Below, piece after piece: positions 1,736-7,889 of a DNA stretch of 64,000 nucleotides. The stretch is from Burkholderiales bacterium (lineage in GTDB: Bacteria > Pseudomonadota > Gammaproteobacteria > Burkholderiales > Ga0077523), in NCBI GenBank assembly GCA_019745565.1, contig JAIESW010000003.1, positions 1 through 64,000 on the forward strand. The letters are read 5' to 3'. The position numbers and the translations under genes were made by a program. A model generated the notes under the pieces. It did not search any database and was not told where the DNA came from. It was given only the letters and a program-made list of their open reading frames with translations. Position 1 is the stretch's first letter. The number at the start of each line of letters is the position of its first letter.

Positions 1736-2029
1736 CTACGAACGCTGCTCACCGTGCGCAGGGTCTCGATGCTGGTGACGCACTACAAGAATTCGAATCC
1801 CGGCATTCGCGTGTTTGTAGATCACCGAATACGGAAACCCTGTGAACGGGTATGAGCGTCGGTCCTCTCCAGTGGGTTTCCCGATGTCCGGAAATTCTTC
1901 AAGCAGCCTGATGACACGTTCGAACTCATCCAGGAAGCGACGAGCGAGGCCGTTACCGGCCTCGCGCCTATAGAAGCGAAAGGCTTCCGTGAGATCTTGT
2001 TCTGCGCCCCTGTGCAGGGAACATGTCAC
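1736..2029 (-). CDS. RelE/ParE-superfamily toxin
   Basis: A 97-residue basic protein with the RelE/ParE pattern: an N-terminal helix-forming stretch AEQDLTEAFRFY, a FLDEFERVIRLLEEFP helix and a C-terminal beta segment ending IRILVVRHQHRDP. ParE-type members poison gyrase and RelE-type members cleave ribosomal mRNA. The sequence does not decide between them, although the FPDIGKP...YPFTGFPYSVIYK arrangement is closer to the ParE side. Its ATG overlaps the stop of the antitoxin gene by 4 nt, the usual antitoxin-first order. The pair is probably autoregulated by the antitoxin or complex, but no operator was identified. Confidence 0.85.
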   Translation of the reverse strand: MTCSLHRGAEQDLTEAFRFYRREAGNGLARRFLDEFERVIRLLEEFPDIGKPTGEDRRSYPFTGFPYSVIYKHANAGIRILVVRHQHRDPAHGEQRS

Positions 2030-2250
2030 TTCAACTCGGCTCTCAGACGCGCCAAGACCTCAGGGCCTGAGATTGCCTTGCTCTGCCCGGACTCGATCTC
2101 CGCATCGCGGTGGGCAGCGAGCGCGTCCCACGCCTCATCGCGCTTGCGGTCGGCGTCGAGGCTGGCAACGACTCGATCAAGCAACTTCGACCGATCTTCA
2201 GTGGGCAACTGCAGCACTTCTTCTGCCAATGCATCGAGTGGACGCGACAT
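2026..2250 (-). CDS. Antitoxin of the addiction-module component family (PF09720-like)
   Basis: A 74-residue acidic protein with the pattern LAEEVLQLPTEDRSKLLDRVVASLD, typical of the small antitoxins that precede ParE/RelE toxins (Unstab_antitox, 'addiction module component'). It is expected to wrap around and neutralise the toxin encoded immediately downstream, with which it shares a 4-nt ATGA overlap. The C-terminal part (EIESGQSKAISGPEVLARL) is the usual toxin-binding tail. Confidence in the pairing is high because of the overlap; the cellular target is not inferable. Confidence 0.85.
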   Translation of the reverse strand: MSRPLDALAEEVLQLPTEDRSKLLDRVVASLDADRKRDEAWDALAAHRDAEIESGQSKAISGPEVLARLRAELK

Positions 2251-2327
2251 TGCTAGCTCCAGGAACTACAAAACTGGTAATAGCTTGCCACAACACCGCG
2301 CAGCCGGCCGAAAGACGACCTCAAGGG

Positions 2328-2549
2328 TCATCTCTCCAAGCGGGTTGCAATCGATGCCTTCACGGTTTCCCAGGGCACGACGTCATCGGGGTTGGACTCG
2401 TGATCCTCCAACCGCCGATCCAACTCGAGACGCCGCGCCTCCGTCAGGGGCGTAGCCTCAGCGAGGCTGTCCCATATCTCTTCCGCGAGCGAGATTCGCT
2501 CCTCGACGGTGAGGCGCTCGATTCCTAAGGTCTTCAGGGATGAACTCAT
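2328..2549 (-). CDS. Orphan antitoxin of the same addiction-module family
   Basis: A 73-residue protein containing IERLTVEERISLAEEIWDSL, the hallmark N-terminal half of the PF09720/TIGR02574 antitoxin family, followed by LDRRLEDHESNPDDVVPWE. The ATG at 2549 is used; an in-frame ATG at 2558 is equally possible. The protein is paralogous in type to the antitoxin at 2026-2250, but no toxin gene follows: only 77 bp separate the two antitoxin genes, with no RelE/ParE frame. It is either a leftover whose toxin was lost or an extra antitoxin that could cross-neutralise. A longer upstream extension of this frame overlaps hflX and is not credible. Confidence 0.75.
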   Translation of the reverse strand: MSSSLKTLGIERLTVEERISLAEEIWDSLAEATPLTEARRLELDRRLEDHESNPDDVVPWETVKASIATRLER

Positions 2550-2700
2550 TGGTTTCATCCTATCAAGATACGGGCGTGGCAGACACGACGCGCAAGACGA
2601 CCAGTACTGGCGCCCGAGCATGATGTTACATAGGTCACAGAGTCGAGAGTCGGCTGCACCCAACGAACAGCACACCCCGGCCCTGGAGTCCTCACCATTC

Positions 2701-4143
2701 CTACGACCCCTCCCGCTCCTGCGTGCTGGCAATACGCTCGCGCAGCCCCTCGATATCGCTGCGCTCGCCGCGCACACGGAACAATGCCCCCTCCCCGTCG
2801 GCGCTCTCCTCCAACACCTCGCAAGTCGCAAAGATCTCCCCGCGCAGCTGTTGCGCCGACCAGGGCACGAACAACTCGGCCTTGACCAACTTCTTCGCGA
2901 AGAACGCACGGATCGCCTTGCGCAGCTTCGCCACGTCGTCCTCGTCGACCGCACTCATCACGATGCATTTCGGGTACTGGGCCCGCAACGCCTTCGCCCG
3001 TTCTGTCTGGGCCTTCTTGTCGCCGACCTGATCGATCTTGTTGAACACGCGCAGGCGCGGCACCTTGTCCGCGTCGATCTCGGCCAGCACCTGGTCGGTC
3101 ACCTCGATGTGGCGTTCGAACCCGGGATCGCTCGCGTCGACCACGTGGACCAGCAGCGATGCCTCGGCGGCTTCCTCCAGCGTGGACTTGAACGACGCGA
3201 CGAGATCGTGCGGCAGGTTCTTGATGAAGCCCACCGTGTCGGTAACCAGCACGCGCGGCACACCCTCCGGCACCAGGGTACGCACGGTGGTGTCGAGGGT
3301 CGCGAACAGCTTGTTGGCGACCAGCACCCCGCTCCCCGTCAGCGCGCGCATCAGAGTGGATTTGCCCGCGTTGGTGTAGCCCACGAGCGCCACGCGCGCC
3401 AGACCCTGATTCGCATGGCGCCGCGCGCGCTGCGTCCGTCGCTCCGCATCCAGGGCGATGATCTCCTGCTTGAGCTCGGCGATGCGATCGCGAATCTTCG
3501 CGCGGTCCGCTTCGCCGGCCGCCTCCCCCGCACCCCGGCCACCGACACCGCTGCGCTGCCGCCCCTGCGGCCCGGCCAGCTTGGCCGCCTCGCGCAGGCG
3601 CGGTGCCAAGTACCGGAGGCGCGCGATCTCGACCTGCGCGCGTGCCGCGTTGGAGCGGGCGTGGCGGTGAAAGATCTCCAGAATCACCATCGTCCGGTCC
3701 AGCACGTCGCAACCGACCTCGTTCTCGAGGTTGCGGGCCTGTGAGGGTGAGATCTCGTGATCCACGAGGACGAAGGCCGCCTGGCGGGTATCGGCACCGG
3801 TCTGGGCCTTGGCGGCTTCCCGGGCGGCGACGAGGCCGTGGTGAGCGATACGCGGCTCGTCGCTCTTTCCCGAGTGCTTGCCGTCCGAGGAGCCATCGTC
3901 CGGCTCTTCCGCTTCACCCTGCACGAATCGACGGATCTCTTCCCGCTTGCCGACGCCGAGATAGGCCGTTGAATCGAAGCTGGTCCGCTTCTGCGTGAAG
4001 GTGGCCACTACTTCGAAGCCCAGCGTCCTGGCCAGCTCACGCAATTCGCTCAGCGACGACTCGAACTCCGAATCGCTGACTTCAGGAAGTTGTACGGCGG
4101 CGACGACGGCTCGTTGCGGGGTGGTGCGGAGGGCTTCGGACAT
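2701..4143 (-). CDS. hflX: GTPase HflX with an unusual N-domain insertion
   Basis: HflX is a ribosome-associated GTPase that splits and rescues stalled 70S ribosomes. The G-domain motifs are complete: G1 GYTNAGKS (255-262), LDTT (about 283-286), G3 DTVG (302-305) and G4 NKID (368-371). The N-terminal domain contains the nucleotide-binding-like YLGVGK and the conserved GCDVLDRT/ILEIFHRHA segment, then a coiled linker (about 215-245). At 480 aa it is longer than the usual 370-430. The extra length is mainly a hydrophilic insert at about residues 76-120, where ordinary HflX proteins go almost directly from the GK-REEI helix to the LVDHEISPSQ strand. There is no hfq neighbour here. The gene borders the accessory islet. 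Confidence 0.93.
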   Translation of the reverse strand: MSEALRTTPQRAVVAAVQLPEVSDSEFESSLSELRELARTLGFEVVATFTQKRTSFDSTAYLGVGKREEIRRFVQGEAEEPDDGSSDGKHSGKSDEPRIAHHGLVAAREAAKAQTGADTRQAAFVLVDHEISPSQARNLENEVGCDVLDRTMVILEIFHRHARSNAARAQVEIARLRYLAPRLREAAKLAGPQGRQRSGVGGRGAGEAAGEADRAKIRDRIAELKQEIIALDAERRTQRARRHANQGLARVALVGYTNAGKSTLMRALTGSGVLVANKLFATLDTTVRTLVPEGVPRVLVTDTVGFIKNLPHDLVASFKSTLEEAAEASLLVHVVDASDPGFERHIEVTDQVLAEIDADKVPRLRVFNKIDQVGDKKAQTERAKALRAQYPKCIVMSAVDEDDVAKLRKAIRAFFAKKLVKAELFVPWSAQQLRGEIFATCEVLEESADGEGALFRVRGERSDIEGLRERIASTQEREGS

Positions 4144-4409
4144 TCTCTGGCGCTAGGGGTGAGGAGGCGCGCATCGCCAGTGTACCTTGCTGTTGCCCTC
4201 GCCTCGACAGGCAGTTGGGGGTCGGTGCTGGCGTGCCGCCGACACGCAAGCGTAAGAGTGGGTTACGTCAGCGTCGGGGCTTGCGGCAATACACTCTTCG
4301 ACTCCGCGAGGCAGCGACGGGAAGTCAGATGCCGCTTAGCGGCCCTATCGCTGACTTCCTAGCTGATACGCGCAGATACGCGATGCGTGACTGCAAGACC
4401 TGCCCCGTG

Positions 4410-4780
4410 GTGCCCACTTGTCGGAGGTGCGCGCTGCTCCGCGCCGATGCCCGGAACTCCATGGTTACTGCCTGCTCCTCGTCAAGCTCGATGCGGCTTT
4501 CCATCCCGGGGGAGGCGACGCAGTCTTGCCCTTCGCGTCTGCGCCGCTGTTGCCTGCCAGCGTCTTGAAACTATCGGCCTTCCCCAATGCGGTCATTTCG
4601 GGACTTTCCACCTTCACGGCCGGCTTCACCCGCTGCCATTGCTCCTCGCTTGCCTTCGTACCTACGCATCAAGCGCGCTGTCACCAACACGCCTGCAAGG
4701 CTCGATACCAGACCCGTGGCTAGCGGTTATCTGGGCGGGACTTCCACCCGCTGGATCACGCAGCATTGCCATGCCGCAAC
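4410..4780 (-). mobile_element. Group II intron, 5' (domain I) fragment, truncated
   Basis: Read on the minus strand from about 4780, the sequence has features I recognise from the 5' domain I of bacterial group II introns. These include GCGGGTGGAAGTCCCGCC (4734-4751), CGCTAGCCACGGGTCTGG, GAAGGTGGAAAGTCCCG and GGGGAAGGCCGATAG, with a probable 5' end near GTTGCGGCATGGCAATGC. No reverse transcriptase/maturase and no domain V/VI hairpin follow, so the element is a dead fragment. CAAGACTTGACCCCGTG (4781-4797) lies just outside the 5' end. A near copy, CAAGACCTGCCCCGTG (4394-4409), lies at the other side, so the fragment is bracketed by imperfect direct repeats. Frames crossing it on the plus strand are not genes. 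I see no feature in 4144-4393. Confidence 0.72.
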
Positions 4781-4824
4781 CAAGACTTGACCCCGTGCTT
4801 GTGCTTGATCCCGATCCGTCACGC

Positions 4825-5490
4825 TCACGCCCCCTCACGATGCGAGCGAAAGATGGAGTCCGCCAGCCTTGTTGAAGCCCCCATCAACTTCGCCAGAACT
4901 CTCAGTTGTTCTCTGCAAGTGCCGATCTCCGTCGGTACTGGATAGTTAATCTGGTGCTCGATCTCCCCCCAAGCCTCCTCAAAGAGTGTCCGTACCTGCA
5001 CCTCGCAGGAAAGGTTCGAGTCGGCCCGCGGCTTCAAGACATAGTGAATGCTTGTGTAATGACTGTCTTTAACTTGCGTCTCGAGACCCAAATCCCCAAA
5101 AAACTTAGTGCACTCGGGATCCCACGTGTACGCGACGGGGGGTTCGTGAAGAGCCCAGTCGCCCCTTTTGATCTGCTCATTTATTACAGTGTGAATTTCC
5201 GTGAACTGAGCCTGATACAAGTGGAGGAGCCTAACTCCAGCAAGATCGGTAATGCGCAATAGAAGCTCTGGTGGTTCAACGATCTCCCCGTTGTCAGCCT
5301 TGCGCTTCAGCTTATCCCGCAAGTGTTCTTCGTCCTTCATCCTCGAACGTATTGAGTGAACAACAGCATTCTGACCATGTGACATATGCGGATGCTGCAC
5401 AAAGAACTGCCTAACGCTTTCGCACCAAGCGATCAAGTGGTGCTTGTTTCGTGTGTATTCGTCAATGCATGCTTGGAATGGCAGAGTCAT
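4825..5490 (-). CDS. RelA/SpoT-fold nucleotide pyrophosphokinase domain protein (small alarmone synthetase or toxSAS-like)
   Basis: A single-domain protein (221 aa) with a complete RelA/SpoT synthetase signature and no HD hydrolase, TGS or ACT domain. Numbering from the GTG at 5499: SIRSRMKDEEHL...KLKRK (49-67, pyrophosphate-donor site), ITDLAGVRLL (83-92, metal-binding Asp85), HYTSIHYV (147-154) and the second acidic motif EVQVRT (166-171), then WGEIEH (177-182). It should transfer pyrophosphate from ATP either to GDP/GTP (alarmone) or, in toxSAS relatives, to other acceptors such as tRNA. I prefer ATG 5490 because AAAGGTG lies just before it; the GTG at 5499 overlaps the ParA stop by 4 nt. 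Either way it is translationally coupled to the ParA gene. GC is near 47-50%, unlike its flanks. Confidence 0.82.
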   Translation of the reverse strand: MTLPFQACIDEYTRNKHHLIAWCESVRQFFVQHPHMSHGQNAVVHSIRSRMKDEEHLRDKLKRKADNGEIVEPPELLLRITDLAGVRLLHLYQAQFTEIHTVINEQIKRGDWALHEPPVAYTWDPECTKFFGDLGLETQVKDSHYTSIHYVLKPRADSNLSCEVQVRTLFEEAWGEIEHQINYPVPTEIGTCREQLRVLAKLMGASTRLADSIFRSHREGA

Positions 5491-5495
5491 AGGAA

Positions 5496-6503
5496 TCACC
5501 TTTGACTAGTCGCCTTCTCTATTCTGGAATTTACCTCCTTACCTATGTCGATGAATAGCGCCTTGGCCGCTGATATCTCAGGGTTGTAACCACTGTTGAC
5601 GTGACCTGATAGCCAGCCAAAAGGTAAACCCTTGTCTTGCGCCGCAGCTGAAAGGCTTTGGTAATGCTTAACATCCGCAATCTTGTACGGGGGCTGCAGA
5701 ACCAACTCCGATTCAATGCCCCGTAACACGTCAATCACTCGGCTCTTGACGCGTGGGGCGATCTTTGATTCCCAGTACTCGTGAGGTTTGGATTTTGAAC
5801 CACCATATGCCTTGAACGCCGACACTATGTAGCCCAAGTAGGTCGGCGACGCCCTTATCAATTCTGTTCTCTTGTCTTCGGGCGCCAGCATTTGAACCGT
5901 GCGCCAGTCCTTAATCCACCTCCCGATTGCAGCGCCCACGCTCGTAAGTGCACGGAGCGAGAACAGATCTGGTGCCACCGGCGTTATGAAGCCGTCGCAA
6001 CTAAGTAGCACCGTTCGATTCAGTGGACCAACATTCGGACCTACATCGTAGATCACCACATCTGCACCATGCTTCTCTGCTAGACGGGTGACTGCTCTGT
6101 GCAACGCCCCCATCACAGAATAGCCTCGCGGCTTCCGCGCAAATGAGTCTGTCCATGCCGCTGGGAGTTCTTCTTCGTACGTAGACAACAGTACGTCTCC
6201 AACGACAAGCATTAGGCCTGCTGTTGCGACCGGATACACCGGAATATCCCCCACATCCCCGGTCCCAAGCACCACAGGCCTGACTGCGGACCAGATTGTC
6301 TTCCCGCTCTCTTCCTCTCCGGACTCACCAAGTATGTCGTCAAGTTTGGTCTCTGGGAGGAAGAATGACGAAATATTGCACTGCGGATCTGCATCGACAA
6401 GAAGTACCCTCTTGCCAAGGTCAACAAGACCCGCAGCGATATTGATAGCAAGTGTGGTCTTTCCTACCCCACCCTTGTGGTTGAACAATGCAATTGAATA
6501 CAT
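5496..6503 (-). CDS. ParA/Soj-family ATPase, first gene of the pair with the RelA/SpoT-fold protein
   Basis: A 335-residue deviant-Walker ATPase. KGGVGKTT lies at 10-17, DADPQCN begins near 38 and a Walker-B-like DVGPN lies in the middle. The signature lysine and fold are those of ParA/MinD proteins, which dimerise on ATP and bind DNA or membranes. There is no ParB partner and no parS-like repeat. Instead the stop codon overlaps the start region of the RelA/SpoT-fold gene. The C-terminal half (about 210-335) is longer than minimal ParA and is rich in Lys and aromatic residues. A good RBS (GAGGAG) precedes the ATG. ParA-like ATPases without ParB are known in defence and conjugative islets; the role here is inference. 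Confidence 0.85.
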   Translation of the reverse strand: MYSIALFNHKGGVGKTTLAINIAAGLVDLGKRVLLVDADPQCNISSFFLPETKLDDILGESGEEESGKTIWSAVRPVVLGTGDVGDIPVYPVATAGLMLVVGDVLLSTYEEELPAAWTDSFARKPRGYSVMGALHRAVTRLAEKHGADVVIYDVGPNVGPLNRTVLLSCDGFITPVAPDLFSLRALTSVGAAIGRWIKDWRTVQMLAPEDKRTELIRASPTYLGYIVSAFKAYGGSKSKPHEYWESKIAPRVKSRVIDVLRGIESELVLQPPYKIADVKHYQSLSAAAQDKGLPFGWLSGHVNSGYNPEISAAKALFIDIGKEVNSRIEKATSQR

Positions 6504-6667
6504 TTCGCTCCTCTTTGCTATCCGGGGCCTGAAGATACTAAAGCTTTGAGCCGATGAACTGTCGCGGTATGTACGCTCGCTGGCGCGCCTGCTTCGCTGC
6601 TTACATCGCTGCCATACTCGGGTGCGCCTTCGGTGCTGCGGGCTATAGAACGCTCACTGAGGGATTG

Positions 6668-7591
6668 TTACTTTAGGCCGTAGTACTTTAGGACCGCTTC
6701 TTTGATTACGTCTGTGGCGACCGATACACCTATCTTCCACGTCCCATTGGCGGCCTTCTTGAGATTCTTCAGTAGCCAGGCCTTGGCGTTTGCTCCGAAT
6801 GGCTCCTCTTTGCTCTCCGGTTTTTCAGTCGAAACTATCTTCGCAAGCTCTTTCGCGTCGAATTCGGAGATTCCCGCTCGAGCAAGATTCTCGACGAGCG
6901 CTTGCGTGTCTCCTTGGACAACCCCAACATTGATCTGTGCGCCTTCTCCCGCAGCAGAGATAGTCGTCAAATTCCCATAAATAATCTGTTGAGAGATCTG
7001 AGTCGCGACCGCGGAATGCTCGTCCGTTCCGGTGTTCGTCTTGCCAATCCCGATCGTAGCGGCCTCTGGGACCGATTCCTCTAAAGCAATCGTCAGTTCG
7101 AGGACCCGACTGCGAACAGCGTGCCTGATCTCTGCTAGCGCCGCCCGCGCCACGATTCCTGTGACAGAATTGCATGCGTAACCGTCGTACACTTTGCCTT
7201 GAAGCAAGAGTATGAGATTGGCGGCATTGATACTCAAAGAGCCACCATCGTTTGCCGAGGCGAGGAGATCGTCGACTGCGGCAATGCTTTGTCGCATTTC
7301 ATGACGAGCCCACTTCTCACCAGCGTATTTCTCAATCAGGAATGGTGGAATAGGGGCGTTTCTGATGGCTGAGCCAAACGGTCCGGAGAATGTCCCGGTA
7401 TAGCTAACAGGGATGATTCGGTACTCTGGCAACAGCGATTCAGGCGGATAGCCCTCGGATTCGTGCTTGACCCAATCGGCGAGAGGCTGGCTTCTCAATC
7501 GCGCGGCTAACAATCGAACTTTTAAGAGAATGGGCCCAAGTTCTGTTCCTTCTTTAAGTACCGCCGCCTGGATGTCGTCGAGAAGCGCCAT
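6668..7591 (-). CDS. AbiTii-domain abortive-infection-like protein
   Basis: A 307-residue protein whose N-terminal ~110 residues match the AbiTii pattern as I know it: a leading helix, then LRSQPLADWVKHESEGYPPESLLPEYR and a small beta stretch with FGSAIRNAPIPP. A DDLLASANDGGSL helix and an alanine-rich region follow. After a variable linker comes QIIYGNLTTISAAGEGAQINVGVVQGD and a C-terminal helical part (AKAWLLKNLKKAANGTWKIGVSVATDVI), an arrangement I recall from AbiTii-containing proteins. AbiTii was named from a plasmid abortive-infection system; its biochemical activity is not established. RBS AGGAGAGG precedes the ATG. It is separated from the ParA gene by 164 bp and shares the islet's low GC. 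Confidence 0.7.
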   Translation of the reverse strand: MALLDDIQAAVLKEGTELGPILLKVRLLAARLRSQPLADWVKHESEGYPPESLLPEYRIIPVSYTGTFSGPFGSAIRNAPIPPFLIEKYAGEKWARHEMRQSIAAVDDLLASANDGGSLSINAANLILLLQGKVYDGYACNSVTGIVARAALAEIRHAVRSRVLELTIALEESVPEAATIGIGKTNTGTDEHSAVATQISQQIIYGNLTTISAAGEGAQINVGVVQGDTQALVENLARAGISEFDAKELAKIVSTEKPESKEEPFGANAKAWLLKNLKKAANGTWKIGVSVATDVIKEAVLKYYGLK

Positions 7592-7654
7592 CTAGTCCTC
7601 TCCTAAACGATGATGGTAGCCAACTCCCTTAGATACCGGAAACGAACCAGCCGG

Positions 7655-7678
7655 GCGCCGCGCACCCTTGCGCGGCGC
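7655..7678. terminator. Perfect 10-bp hairpin downstream of the DUF3617 gene
   Basis: GCGCCGCGCA and TGCGCGGCGC pair perfectly around a CCCT loop. The hairpin lies after the stop of the minus-strand DUF3617 gene and upstream of the AbiTii gene, so it may end the chromosomal transcript before the islet. There is no T-tract on either strand, so intrinsic termination is not certain. The rest of 7592-7889 shows no gene or other structure that I can support. Confidence 0.4.
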
Positions 7679-7889
7679 GTTACTGGAAGCGACTAGTTGA
7701 GCACTATCAGCCCGCCGAGGATGCAAGTAACCACATTGTCGACATCGCCAGTTCATGCAGCAAGCATAGGCGACGTGTCCCGGTTCGCCGTGCCGGCCAC
7801 ACCAAAGTTGGCTCTTCTACGTCGGACGGGTCCGGGACCGCTTATTCCTAGATTGGCTGGCAGATGTTCGACCAGCCTCTAGCAGGCTC

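What the first reader, a model, noticed from the sequence alone, without database searches (positions are those of the whole stretch)
4825..7591. RelA/SpoT synthetase + ParB-less ParA ATPase + AbiTii protein form a low-GC islet: candidate new defence system
Seen: a complete RelA/SpoT synthetase domain with no hydrolase or regulatory domain is coupled by a 4-nt overlap region to a ParA-family ATPase. An AbiTii-type protein follows on the same strand and in the same low-GC block. Flanks are high-GC housekeeping genes. Known: alarmone-synthetase toxins (toxSAS, CapRel) and AbiTii proteins are linked to phage abortive infection; ParA-like ATPases without ParB recur in mobile islets. Inference: ParA senses or localises to phage DNA or replication and the synthetase acts as effector. 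The AbiTii protein may be a separate module or third component. I know no described system with exactly this pair.
Basis: partly seen in the sequence, partly recalled or inferred. Interest (0 to 1): 0.85.

Follow-up and report, generated by a model that had tools for sequence, protein, structure and literature searches.

The report
ParA–alarmone synthetase two-gene module
A ParA-type ATPase gene and an alarmone-synthetase gene sit side by side here and in scattered bacteria, archaea and prophages, and together they likely form a shutdown module in which the ATPase is predicted to hold the enzyme in check until a phage attacks.

Summary
On the minus strand lie AbiTii (7591-6668), a ParA-type ATPase (6503-5496) and a small alarmone synthetase (SAS; 5499/5490-4825), in the lowest-GC stretch of the window. 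The ParA-SAS pair is not a local oddity: of 80 public genome loci holding this SAS subfamily, 77 have the ParA directly upstream, in bacteria and archaea; two of the three misses are cut by contig ends. AbiTii is in 0 of 80, so it is a separate neighbour, and it lies upstream in transcription order.

The ParA belongs to a distinct family whose members are coupled to SAS, a SIR2-type enzyme, a HEPN RNase-type protein, a Schlafen-AlbA_2 protein or an unknown cyclase-like protein, largely clade by clade; half of the viral members sampled stand alone. In P2-family prophages, ParA-SAS and ParA-SIR2 occupy the old/tin defence hotspot. A ParA-HEPN dyad was predicted as toxin-antitoxin in 2013; ten paper searches gave no description of the SAS form.

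Best reading: a two-gene toxin-antitoxin/abortive-infection module, with ParA as nucleotide switch and SAS as growth-stopping effector. Toxicity, phage protection, trigger and product are untested.

The parts
4825..5499 (-). Small alarmone synthetase (SAS, RelA_SpoT domain), 224 aa from GTG 5499 or 221 aa from ATG 5490; predicted effector
   Evidence: Pfam RelA_SpoT E 3.2e-15; R53, K55, K63, D85, R90, Y148, E166, Q168, R170 kept in 102-106 of 107 different proteins, window included, gaps counted as misses; AlphaFold model pLDDT 93, nearest PDB folds RelP/RelQ
5496..6503 (-). ParA-type ATPase, 335 aa, of a distinct family with exchangeable partners; predicted switch/antitoxin
   Evidence: AAA_31 E 4.2e-24; K10, K15, D37, D39, D153 invariant in 32 of 32 aligned members; model pLDDT 93; PDB 3pg5 matches the family profile over nearly its whole length, E 1.7e-79
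5491..5499 (-). Junction of the two genes: AAAGGTGA runs into the ParA stop and precedes ATG 5490; GTG 5499 overlaps the ParA stop by 4 nt
   Evidence: sequence; homologue starts in A1
6504..6667 (-). 164-nt spacer between AbiTii and ParA; no sigma-70-like site or terminator listed in it by a simple scan
6668..7591 (-). AbiTii-family protein, 307 aa: a neighbour, judged a separate module
   Evidence: Pfam AbiTii E 2.7e-40, PADLOC AbiTii E 7.9e-33; no homologue in 80 of 80 SAS loci, which reach up to 8 kb either side
1753..7889 (.). Variable segment between dac and DUF3617 that holds the ParE-type module, HflX, SAS, ParA and AbiTii
   Evidence: dac adjoins DUF3617 in six same-genus genomes, none of the window genes between them found; blastn flanks

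Best explanation
The ParA-type ATPase gene and the alarmone-synthetase gene form one conserved two-gene unit that is likely a toxin-antitoxin/abortive-infection module, in which ParA is predicted to act as the nucleotide-driven switch that restrains the synthetase and the synthetase would stop growth once released. Shown: the genes are adjacent, co-directional and coupled in 77 of 80 genome loci; active-site residues of the synthetase and nucleotide-site residues of the ParA are conserved; SIR2-, HEPN- and cyclase-like-linked relatives of this ParA each form one clade, Schlafen-linked ones nearly so, SAS-linked ones two; homologous pairs sit in a prophage defence hotspot. Inferred: in the resting cell ParA, made first, binds the synthetase as an ATP-state dimer and keeps it off. 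Infection (possibly through host-nucleoid loss, phage DNA replication or a phage protein; trigger unknown) changes the nucleotide or DNA-bound state of ParA and frees or activates the synthetase. The synthetase then makes a growth-stopping product, (p)ppGpp or (p)ppApp, or pyrophosphorylates tRNA 3' ends, and the phage cannot complete its cycle. AbiTii is a separate neighbouring gene.
For: Pair conservation: 77 of 80 genome loci have ParA directly upstream; taking the in-frame start codon nearest the ParA stop, 75 of 77 gaps are -8 to +15 nt, the others 107 and 134. 21 of 23 viral loci have the pair; the other two are a contig edge (L086) and a divergent SAS (L104). In the protein-database searches, 14 of the 24 ParA proteins listed next after the window's own (P0124-P0147, 66-84% identity) have a longest contig of exactly the same length as that of a SAS hit. 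Specificity: three plasmid SAS outside the subfamily (31-37% identity) have no ParA of this family within 3 kb.
Effector-like partners: SIR2_2 E 6e-19 to 9e-28 (3 of 3), RiboL-PSP-HEPN E 2e-5 to 9e-13 (4 of 4, one below Pfam's cut-off); an R-x4-H motif in 12 of 12 HEPN-linked loci, 10 of them different. A recognised partner lies beside 34 of 35 and 14 of 16 ParA-seeded genome loci.
Co-inheritance: a ParA tree of 115 rows needs 10 partner changes against a shuffled mean of 68.4; an AU test rejects one clade for the SAS-linked ParAs, p 8e-80; the SAS tree groups the window's SAS with three linked to the other ParA lineage (support 95/88), so the two genes look re-paired.
Defence setting: E. coli pair in 7 of 5426 genomes, in the two read lying between replication protein and portal of a P2-family prophage, the old/tin hotspot (PMC9122126, passages); same placing in L018 (with identical-ParA copies L085, L087), L082, L088, L100, L101. 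E. coli ParA-SIR2 in 12 of 5426 genomes, same site in the one read. A same-genus relative has a family ParA with AlbA_2 between HmaA and HmaB.
Active sites.
Against: I found no toxicity, phage or biochemical data for any member. The nearest solved folds to the SAS are housekeeping RelP/RelQ, with CapRel lower (TMq about 0.6 against 0.5), so a mild stress-signalling role is possible. PADLOC hits among 150 near neighbours were scattered and not visibly richer than in 80 distal ones, so defence-island enrichment is not shown. 40 of 80 viral ParA-seeded loci have no recognised partner and 2 are cut, so this ParA family can stand alone, at least in phages; in the Bacillota sample 3 of 6 loci have none either. 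In ParA-seeded genome loci SAS is a rare partner (1 of 35, 1 of 16). The Schlafen partner lies upstream, not downstream. One genome SAS (L068) has no ParA.
Confidence: 0.6

Rival explanations
1. ParA is the infection sensor and activator rather than an antitoxin: SAS is inactive alone and is switched on by ATP-bound or DNA-bound ParA, as in two-protein sensor-effector immune systems.
For: Partners span unrelated chemistries (SIR2, HEPN, SAS, cyclase-like) yet partner type follows ParA clade closely, as expected for a sensor module with swappable effectors; hotspot siting.
Against: Solitary ParAs in viral contigs (40 of 80) fit a decoy/antitoxin at least as well; the sister ParA-HEPN dyad was postulated to be toxin plus antitoxin (PMC3710099). 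Nothing here separates the two.
Confidence: 0.22
2. A stress-response or persistence regulator unrelated to phage: ParA couples nucleotide or DNA state to alarmone level, and the unit spreads because mobile elements carry it.
For: Fold nearest to RelP/RelQ; several neighbours of the pair are metabolic genes.
Against: Patchy distribution (28 of 398, 16 of 321 and 6 of 348 genomes carry any family ParA, the window's own or the centre genome counted), prophage defence-hotspot siting and toxin-type sister partners.
Confidence: 0.12
3. A plasmid- or prophage-partition (ParABS-like) remnant with a passenger synthetase.
For: ParA fold and PHROG 164 'ParA-like partition protein'; about a fourth of P2-like phages are said to carry 'a putative plasmid partitioning system' at the hotspot (PMC9122126), whose identity I did not check.
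Against: Where a partner was recognised it is one of five types that are not ParB (ParB was not searched for in every locus); the family profile separates members from another, shorter ParA in the one genome compared (E 3e-115 against 1e-23); 6 of 72,556 plasmid records match the SAS, 1 over at least 80% of it, and none matches the window ParA at E<=1e-40.
Confidence: 0.04
4. SAS, ParA and AbiTii form a three-gene system.
For: Same strand, same low-GC block, 164-nt gap.
Against: No AbiTii homologue in 80 of 80 SAS loci.
Confidence: 0.02

Closest known systems
ParA/Soj-like ATPase + HEPN (MAE_18760) dyad, predicted toxin-antitoxin (PMC3710099; passages read)
   Same: Two-gene unit of a Soj/ParA-type ATPase and a toxin-type enzyme; my profile family contains ParA-HEPN pairs, including an unannotated HEPN-type gene beside the ParA of phage Pf1
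   Different: Effector here is an alarmone synthetase; the passages read describe only the HEPN form; my HEPN partners match Pfam RiboL-PSP-HEPN, and identity with MAE_18760 was not tested
toxSAS toxin-antitoxin modules (FaRel2, FaRel and others; PMC11782079, start of abstract seen in the listing)
   Same: Stand-alone SAS with intact synthetase motifs next to a partner gene
   Different: Partner is a ParA-type ATPase; nearest folds are RelP/RelQ; toxicity untested
CapRel (fused SAS-antitoxin phage sensor; PMC9712102 seen in listings only; PMC11578894 two passages; design recalled)
   Same: SAS catalytic fold (TMq about 0.5); phage-defence setting
   Different: No fused antitoxin/sensor domain: 224 aa, single Pfam domain
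old/tin and other systems of the P2 prophage hotspot (PMC9122126, passages)
   Same: E. coli and other homologues sit at that locus
   Different: Different genes; I did not recognise a prophage around the window copy in the part that I read (first 14 kb); not among the systems named in the passages read, though 'a putative plasmid partitioning system' is mentioned and its identity was not checked
Hma (helicase-methylase-ATPase; expansion recalled) defence system, PADLOC
   Same: A same-genus relative carries a family ParA with AlbA_2 between HmaA and HmaB
   Different: No helicase or methylase in the window islet

Membership tests
ParA-partner dyad family (ParA/Soj + toxin-type enzyme, as in PMC3710099) | Soj/ParA-type ATPase of this profile family | tested here: met
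   Profile A2 (which includes the window ParA), E 1.1e-126; tree placement
ParA-partner dyad family (ParA/Soj + toxin-type enzyme, as in PMC3710099) | Directly adjacent, co-directional toxin-type gene | tested here: met
   SAS directly downstream; that it is a toxin is inferred
ParA-partner dyad family (ParA/Soj + toxin-type enzyme, as in PMC3710099) | Partner is HEPN | tested here: not met
   Partner is RelA_SpoT; so it is a variant, not that dyad
toxSAS toxin-antitoxin | Synthetase-only RSH protein with intact active site | tested here: met
toxSAS toxin-antitoxin | Toxicity neutralised by the neighbouring gene | not testable with these tools
   Needs expression in cells
toxSAS toxin-antitoxin | Partner is one of the described antitoxin families (recalled, not looked up) | tested here: not met
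   Partner is a ParA-type ATPase
CapRel | SAS fused to an antitoxin/sensor domain | tested here: not met
   224 aa, one Pfam domain
ParABS partition | ParA with Walker A/A'/B | tested here: met
ParABS partition | Cognate ParB and centromere beside ParA | tested here: inconclusive
   No ParB among the ten ORFs scanned around it; SAS takes the place downstream of ParA in 77 of 80 loci; ParB and parS were not searched for across loci
AbiTii-containing three-gene system | AbiTii conserved with ParA-SAS | tested here: not met
   0 of 80 loci
Anti-phage defence system | Homologues in a known defence hotspot | tested here: met
   P2 old/tin site
Anti-phage defence system | Neighbourhood enriched in defence genes | tested here: inconclusive
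   Near and far neighbours look alike in PADLOC
Anti-phage defence system | Measured phage protection | not testable with these tools
   Needs plaque assays

The most novel reading that the evidence does not exclude
One ParA-type nucleotide switch has been wired again and again to different kill enzymes (alarmone synthetase, SIR2 NAD-consuming type, HEPN RNase, cyclase-like and Schlafen-type partners), making a whole undescribed class of ParA-gated prokaryotic immune systems; prophages that carry the ParA alone beside their repressor use it as a decoy antitoxin against these systems.
Probability: 0.3. Interest if true: 0.88.

Novelty: new variant of a known kind. Interest (0 to 1): 0.72.

Why it matters
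ParA proteins are known for moving DNA and cell machinery. A ParA family whose job is to gate growth-stopping enzymes would be a new use of that switch, would explain why ParA and RelA/SpoT genes keep appearing side by side under partition or hypothetical names, and would give a direct test of how an alarmone synthetase without a sensor domain is controlled during infection. The E. coli prophage copies (ParA-SAS and ParA-SIR2) make it testable in a laboratory strain.

Tried and rejected
AbiTii as third gene: rejected. ParABS partition: disfavoured. Defence-island enrichment by PADLOC: 248 near neighbours were drawn from 70 loci (Poribacteria capped at four loci), 232 passed a 900-aa size cut, and the first 150 in locus order were scanned, so 44 loci from L002 to L054 only; 80 of 83 distal ones served as comparison. 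Both sets gave scattered restriction-modification and other hits, the tool gives no per-protein total, and I claim no enrichment. PADLOC candidates PDC-S33 and PDC-M28B match only weakly (best 22 and 36 bits), so the pair is not one of those models. Natural ParA-SAS fusion: none seen; the 474-aa ORF of L068 is SAS joined to a different C-terminal region. Islet-end repeats: no flanking direct repeat found. Promoter and terminator scan: nothing above shuffles. NCBIfam: no model reaches its cut-off for any of the three proteins. One earlier functional screen paper (PMC9519451) holds none of the words ParA, RelA, SpoT, AAA_31 or CapRel.

Rows dropped or limits. The ParA tree used 115 of 144 rows left after removal of near-copies; SAS-linked rows were thinned from 59 to 30, 22 of them at random. 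Two long-branch rows (L204, L210) were dropped before the AU test, whose group was named after the tree was seen. The first partner count missed Schlafen genes where the ParA start was called too early; one search replaces it. One search's six loci include the centre genome, itself a profile member, so 2 of 5 are new; searches used a profile partly built loci. Searches kept the best 80 of 151 and 437 relatives. Several SAS-linked loci are the same viral contigs as.
Full report
WHAT IS THERE. The window carries on its minus strand, in transcription order, AbiTii (7591-6668), a ParA-type ATPase (6503-5496) and a small alarmone synthetase, SAS (5499-4825). Pfam confirms all three. The stretch 4825-7591 has GC 0.530, the lowest of 245 same-size windows in the 64 kb. 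The SAS start is either GTG 5499 (4-nt overlap with the ParA stop) or, more likely from the upstream AAAGGTGA and from homologue starts, ATG 5490.

THE SITE. The two nearest relatives share the flank up to DUF3617 (7890) and then diverge (G008, G009). In six same-genus genomes (G001-G005, G010) the dac gene lies next to DUF3617, and none of the window genes between them was found there. In G006, G008, G009 and G011 no dac was found in the stretch fetched, and G007 has no DUF3617 match. So 1753-7889, with the ParE-type module, an HflX, SAS, ParA and AbiTii, is a variable segment. Among 100 genomes searched, which include the own genome and 11 same-genus relatives, only the own genome holds a close copy of the ParA; the next best is 37% identical.

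THE PAIR IS CONSERVED. A profile of 38 SAS homologues found 151 relatives in a collection of 84,980 species genomes, by two short peptide patterns, and the best 80 were kept. Of these 80, 77 have the ParA directly upstream on the same strand. With the in-frame start codon nearest the ParA stop, gaps are -8 to +15 nt in 75 of 77, and 107 and 134 nt in the other two. The misses are L029 and L034 (contig starts; the L034 fragment reads like a ParA C-terminus) and L068, which has another neighbour. Record titles include Gammaproteobacteria, Betaproteobacteria, Bacteroides, Flavobacterium, Paenibacillus, Clostridium, Campylobacterales, Acidobacteriaceae, many Poribacteria and two archaea (Methanothrix and a Euryarchaeota record). 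Of 23 viral loci, 21 have the pair; L086 is a contig edge and L104 a divergent SAS. Three SAS outside the subfamily on plasmids have no ParA of this family within 3 kb. No AbiTii homologue occurs in the 80 loci.

THE PARA FAMILY HAS EXCHANGEABLE PARTNERS. Searching by ParA instead of SAS gave 35 loci from relatives and the phylum, and 34 have one of five partner types directly adjacent: 25 Schlafen-AlbA_2 (upstream), 4 HEPN, 3 SIR2, 1 SAS, 1 cyclase-like (downstream). In a class sample 14 of 16 do (8, 2, 2, 1, 1 in the same order). In a Bacillota sample 3 of 6 do, one of them the centre genome itself. In viral contigs 38 of 80 do (16 SAS, 11 SIR2, 5 cyclase-like, 4 HEPN, 2 Schlafen), 40 have none and 2 are cut. 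Pfam supports the SIR2_2 and RiboL-PSP-HEPN partners tested and SLFN_AlbA_2 with HATPase_c_4; the one cyclase-like protein scanned has no Pfam match, and that name is my reading of its motifs from memory. All 12 HEPN-linked loci (10 different) have R-x4-H, and all 16 SIR2 partners have a G-[AS]-G-[AV]-S motif. An unannotated HEPN-type gene follows the ParA of phage Pf1. On a tree of 115 ParAs the partner label changes 10 times against a shuffled mean of 68.4; SIR2, HEPN and cyclase-like each need one change, Schlafen two, SAS four and partnerless seven. The SAS-linked ParAs are not one clade (AU p 8e-80, group named after seeing the tree), and the SAS tree groups the window's SAS with three linked to the other ParA lineage (support 95/88, one on a long branch). 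The simplest reading is re-pairing of an effector with a second ParA lineage.

DEFENCE SETTING. A distant DNA search found the pair in 7 of 5426 complete E. coli genomes. In the two that I read, it lies between the replication protein/DinI-like genes and the portal gene of a P2-family prophage. That interval is the old/tin hotspot of anti-phage systems (PMC9122126, passages read). Pair between portal and gpA also holds in L018 (L085 and L087 carry the identical ParA), L082, L088, L100 and L101, and the pair adjoins the portal in L019 and L083; in L095 and L098, also P2-like, it lies farther off. ParA-SIR2 is in 12 of 5426 E. coli genomes, at the same site in the one read. In a same-genus relative a family ParA with AlbA_2 lies between HmaA and HmaB. 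Against this, PADLOC hits among near neighbours are scattered and not visibly richer than among far ones, and several neighbours are metabolic genes.

HOW IT LIKELY WORKS. Shown: SAS residues that correspond to the ATP- and acceptor-binding and catalytic positions of RSH synthetases (R53, K55, K63, D85, R90, Y148, E166, Q168, R170; roles recalled from the family) are kept in 102-106 of 107 different proteins. The ParA's signature lysine K10, Walker lysine K15, D39 and D153 are invariant in 32 aligned members (roles recalled). The SAS model is nearest RelP/RelQ, with CapRel further down. The ParA model is nearest 3pg5, an uncharacterised structure that the profile also matches over nearly its whole length. 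Inferred: ParA is the nucleotide switch, SAS the growth-stopping enzyme, infection the trigger. Whether ParA restrains or activates SAS is open; I favour restraint because a sister dyad was so postulated (PMC3710099) and because viral contigs often carry the ParA alone.

NOVELTY. Ten answered paper searches in an open-access library gave, in the titles and abstract starts listed and the passages opened, no description of ParA-SAS, ParA-SIR2 or a ParA-partner family. The 2020 PNAS paper that I recall as the toxSAS discovery was not held, and no preprints are held. The ParA/Soj-HEPN dyad is a 2013 prediction. I therefore call it a new variant of a known, so far predicted, kind.

Noticed in passing
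window 1736-2250 and 2328-2954: ParE-type toxin with an Unstab_antitox partner, and a second ORF with an Unstab_antitox domain beside it, in the same variable segment.
   Followed up: no
window 2701-4143: An HflX-type GTPase inside the variable segment; a second HflX-like gene (51% over residues 108-372) is elsewhere in the same genome (G000:C86). Its GC of 0.67 sets it apart from the low-GC islet.
   Followed up: partly
L211-L216, L269-L280, L185: Solitary ParAs of this family in viral contigs and a phage, several beside a repressor-like gene by my reading of the ORFs; L211-L216 are 51-56% identical to the window ParA, and those on the tree fall in its clade.
   Followed up: partly
L186 4513-5040 (phage Pf1 record AY324828.1): Unannotated 175-aa HEPN-type ORF overlapping the end of the ParA ORF by 8 nt, with RRNSIVH motif.
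   Followed up: yes
L177, L205, L226, L235, L241, L243, L282: A partner family without Pfam match (L177 scanned), with motifs resembling class III nucleotide cyclases (my reading from memory).
   Followed up: partly
L247 2078-2593 and L264 6023-6955: Two further downstream partners that share an RHFG-x2-DW motif; L247's matches nothing in PADLOC; possibly a sixth partner type.
   Followed up: no
HEPN- and cyclase-linked ParAs: Walker A reads KGGVSKT in 10 of 10 HEPN-linked and 7 of 7 cyclase-linked different ParAs, against KGGVGK[TS] in 96 of 102 SAS-linked (6 without a match) and 16 of 16 SIR2-linked ones; effect on ATP use unknown.
   Followed up: partly
PDB 3pg5 (Corynebacterium diphtheriae DIP2308): An uncharacterised structural-genomics entry matches the profile of this ParA family over nearly its whole length (E 1.7e-79; next best Soj 8e-28).
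   Followed up: no
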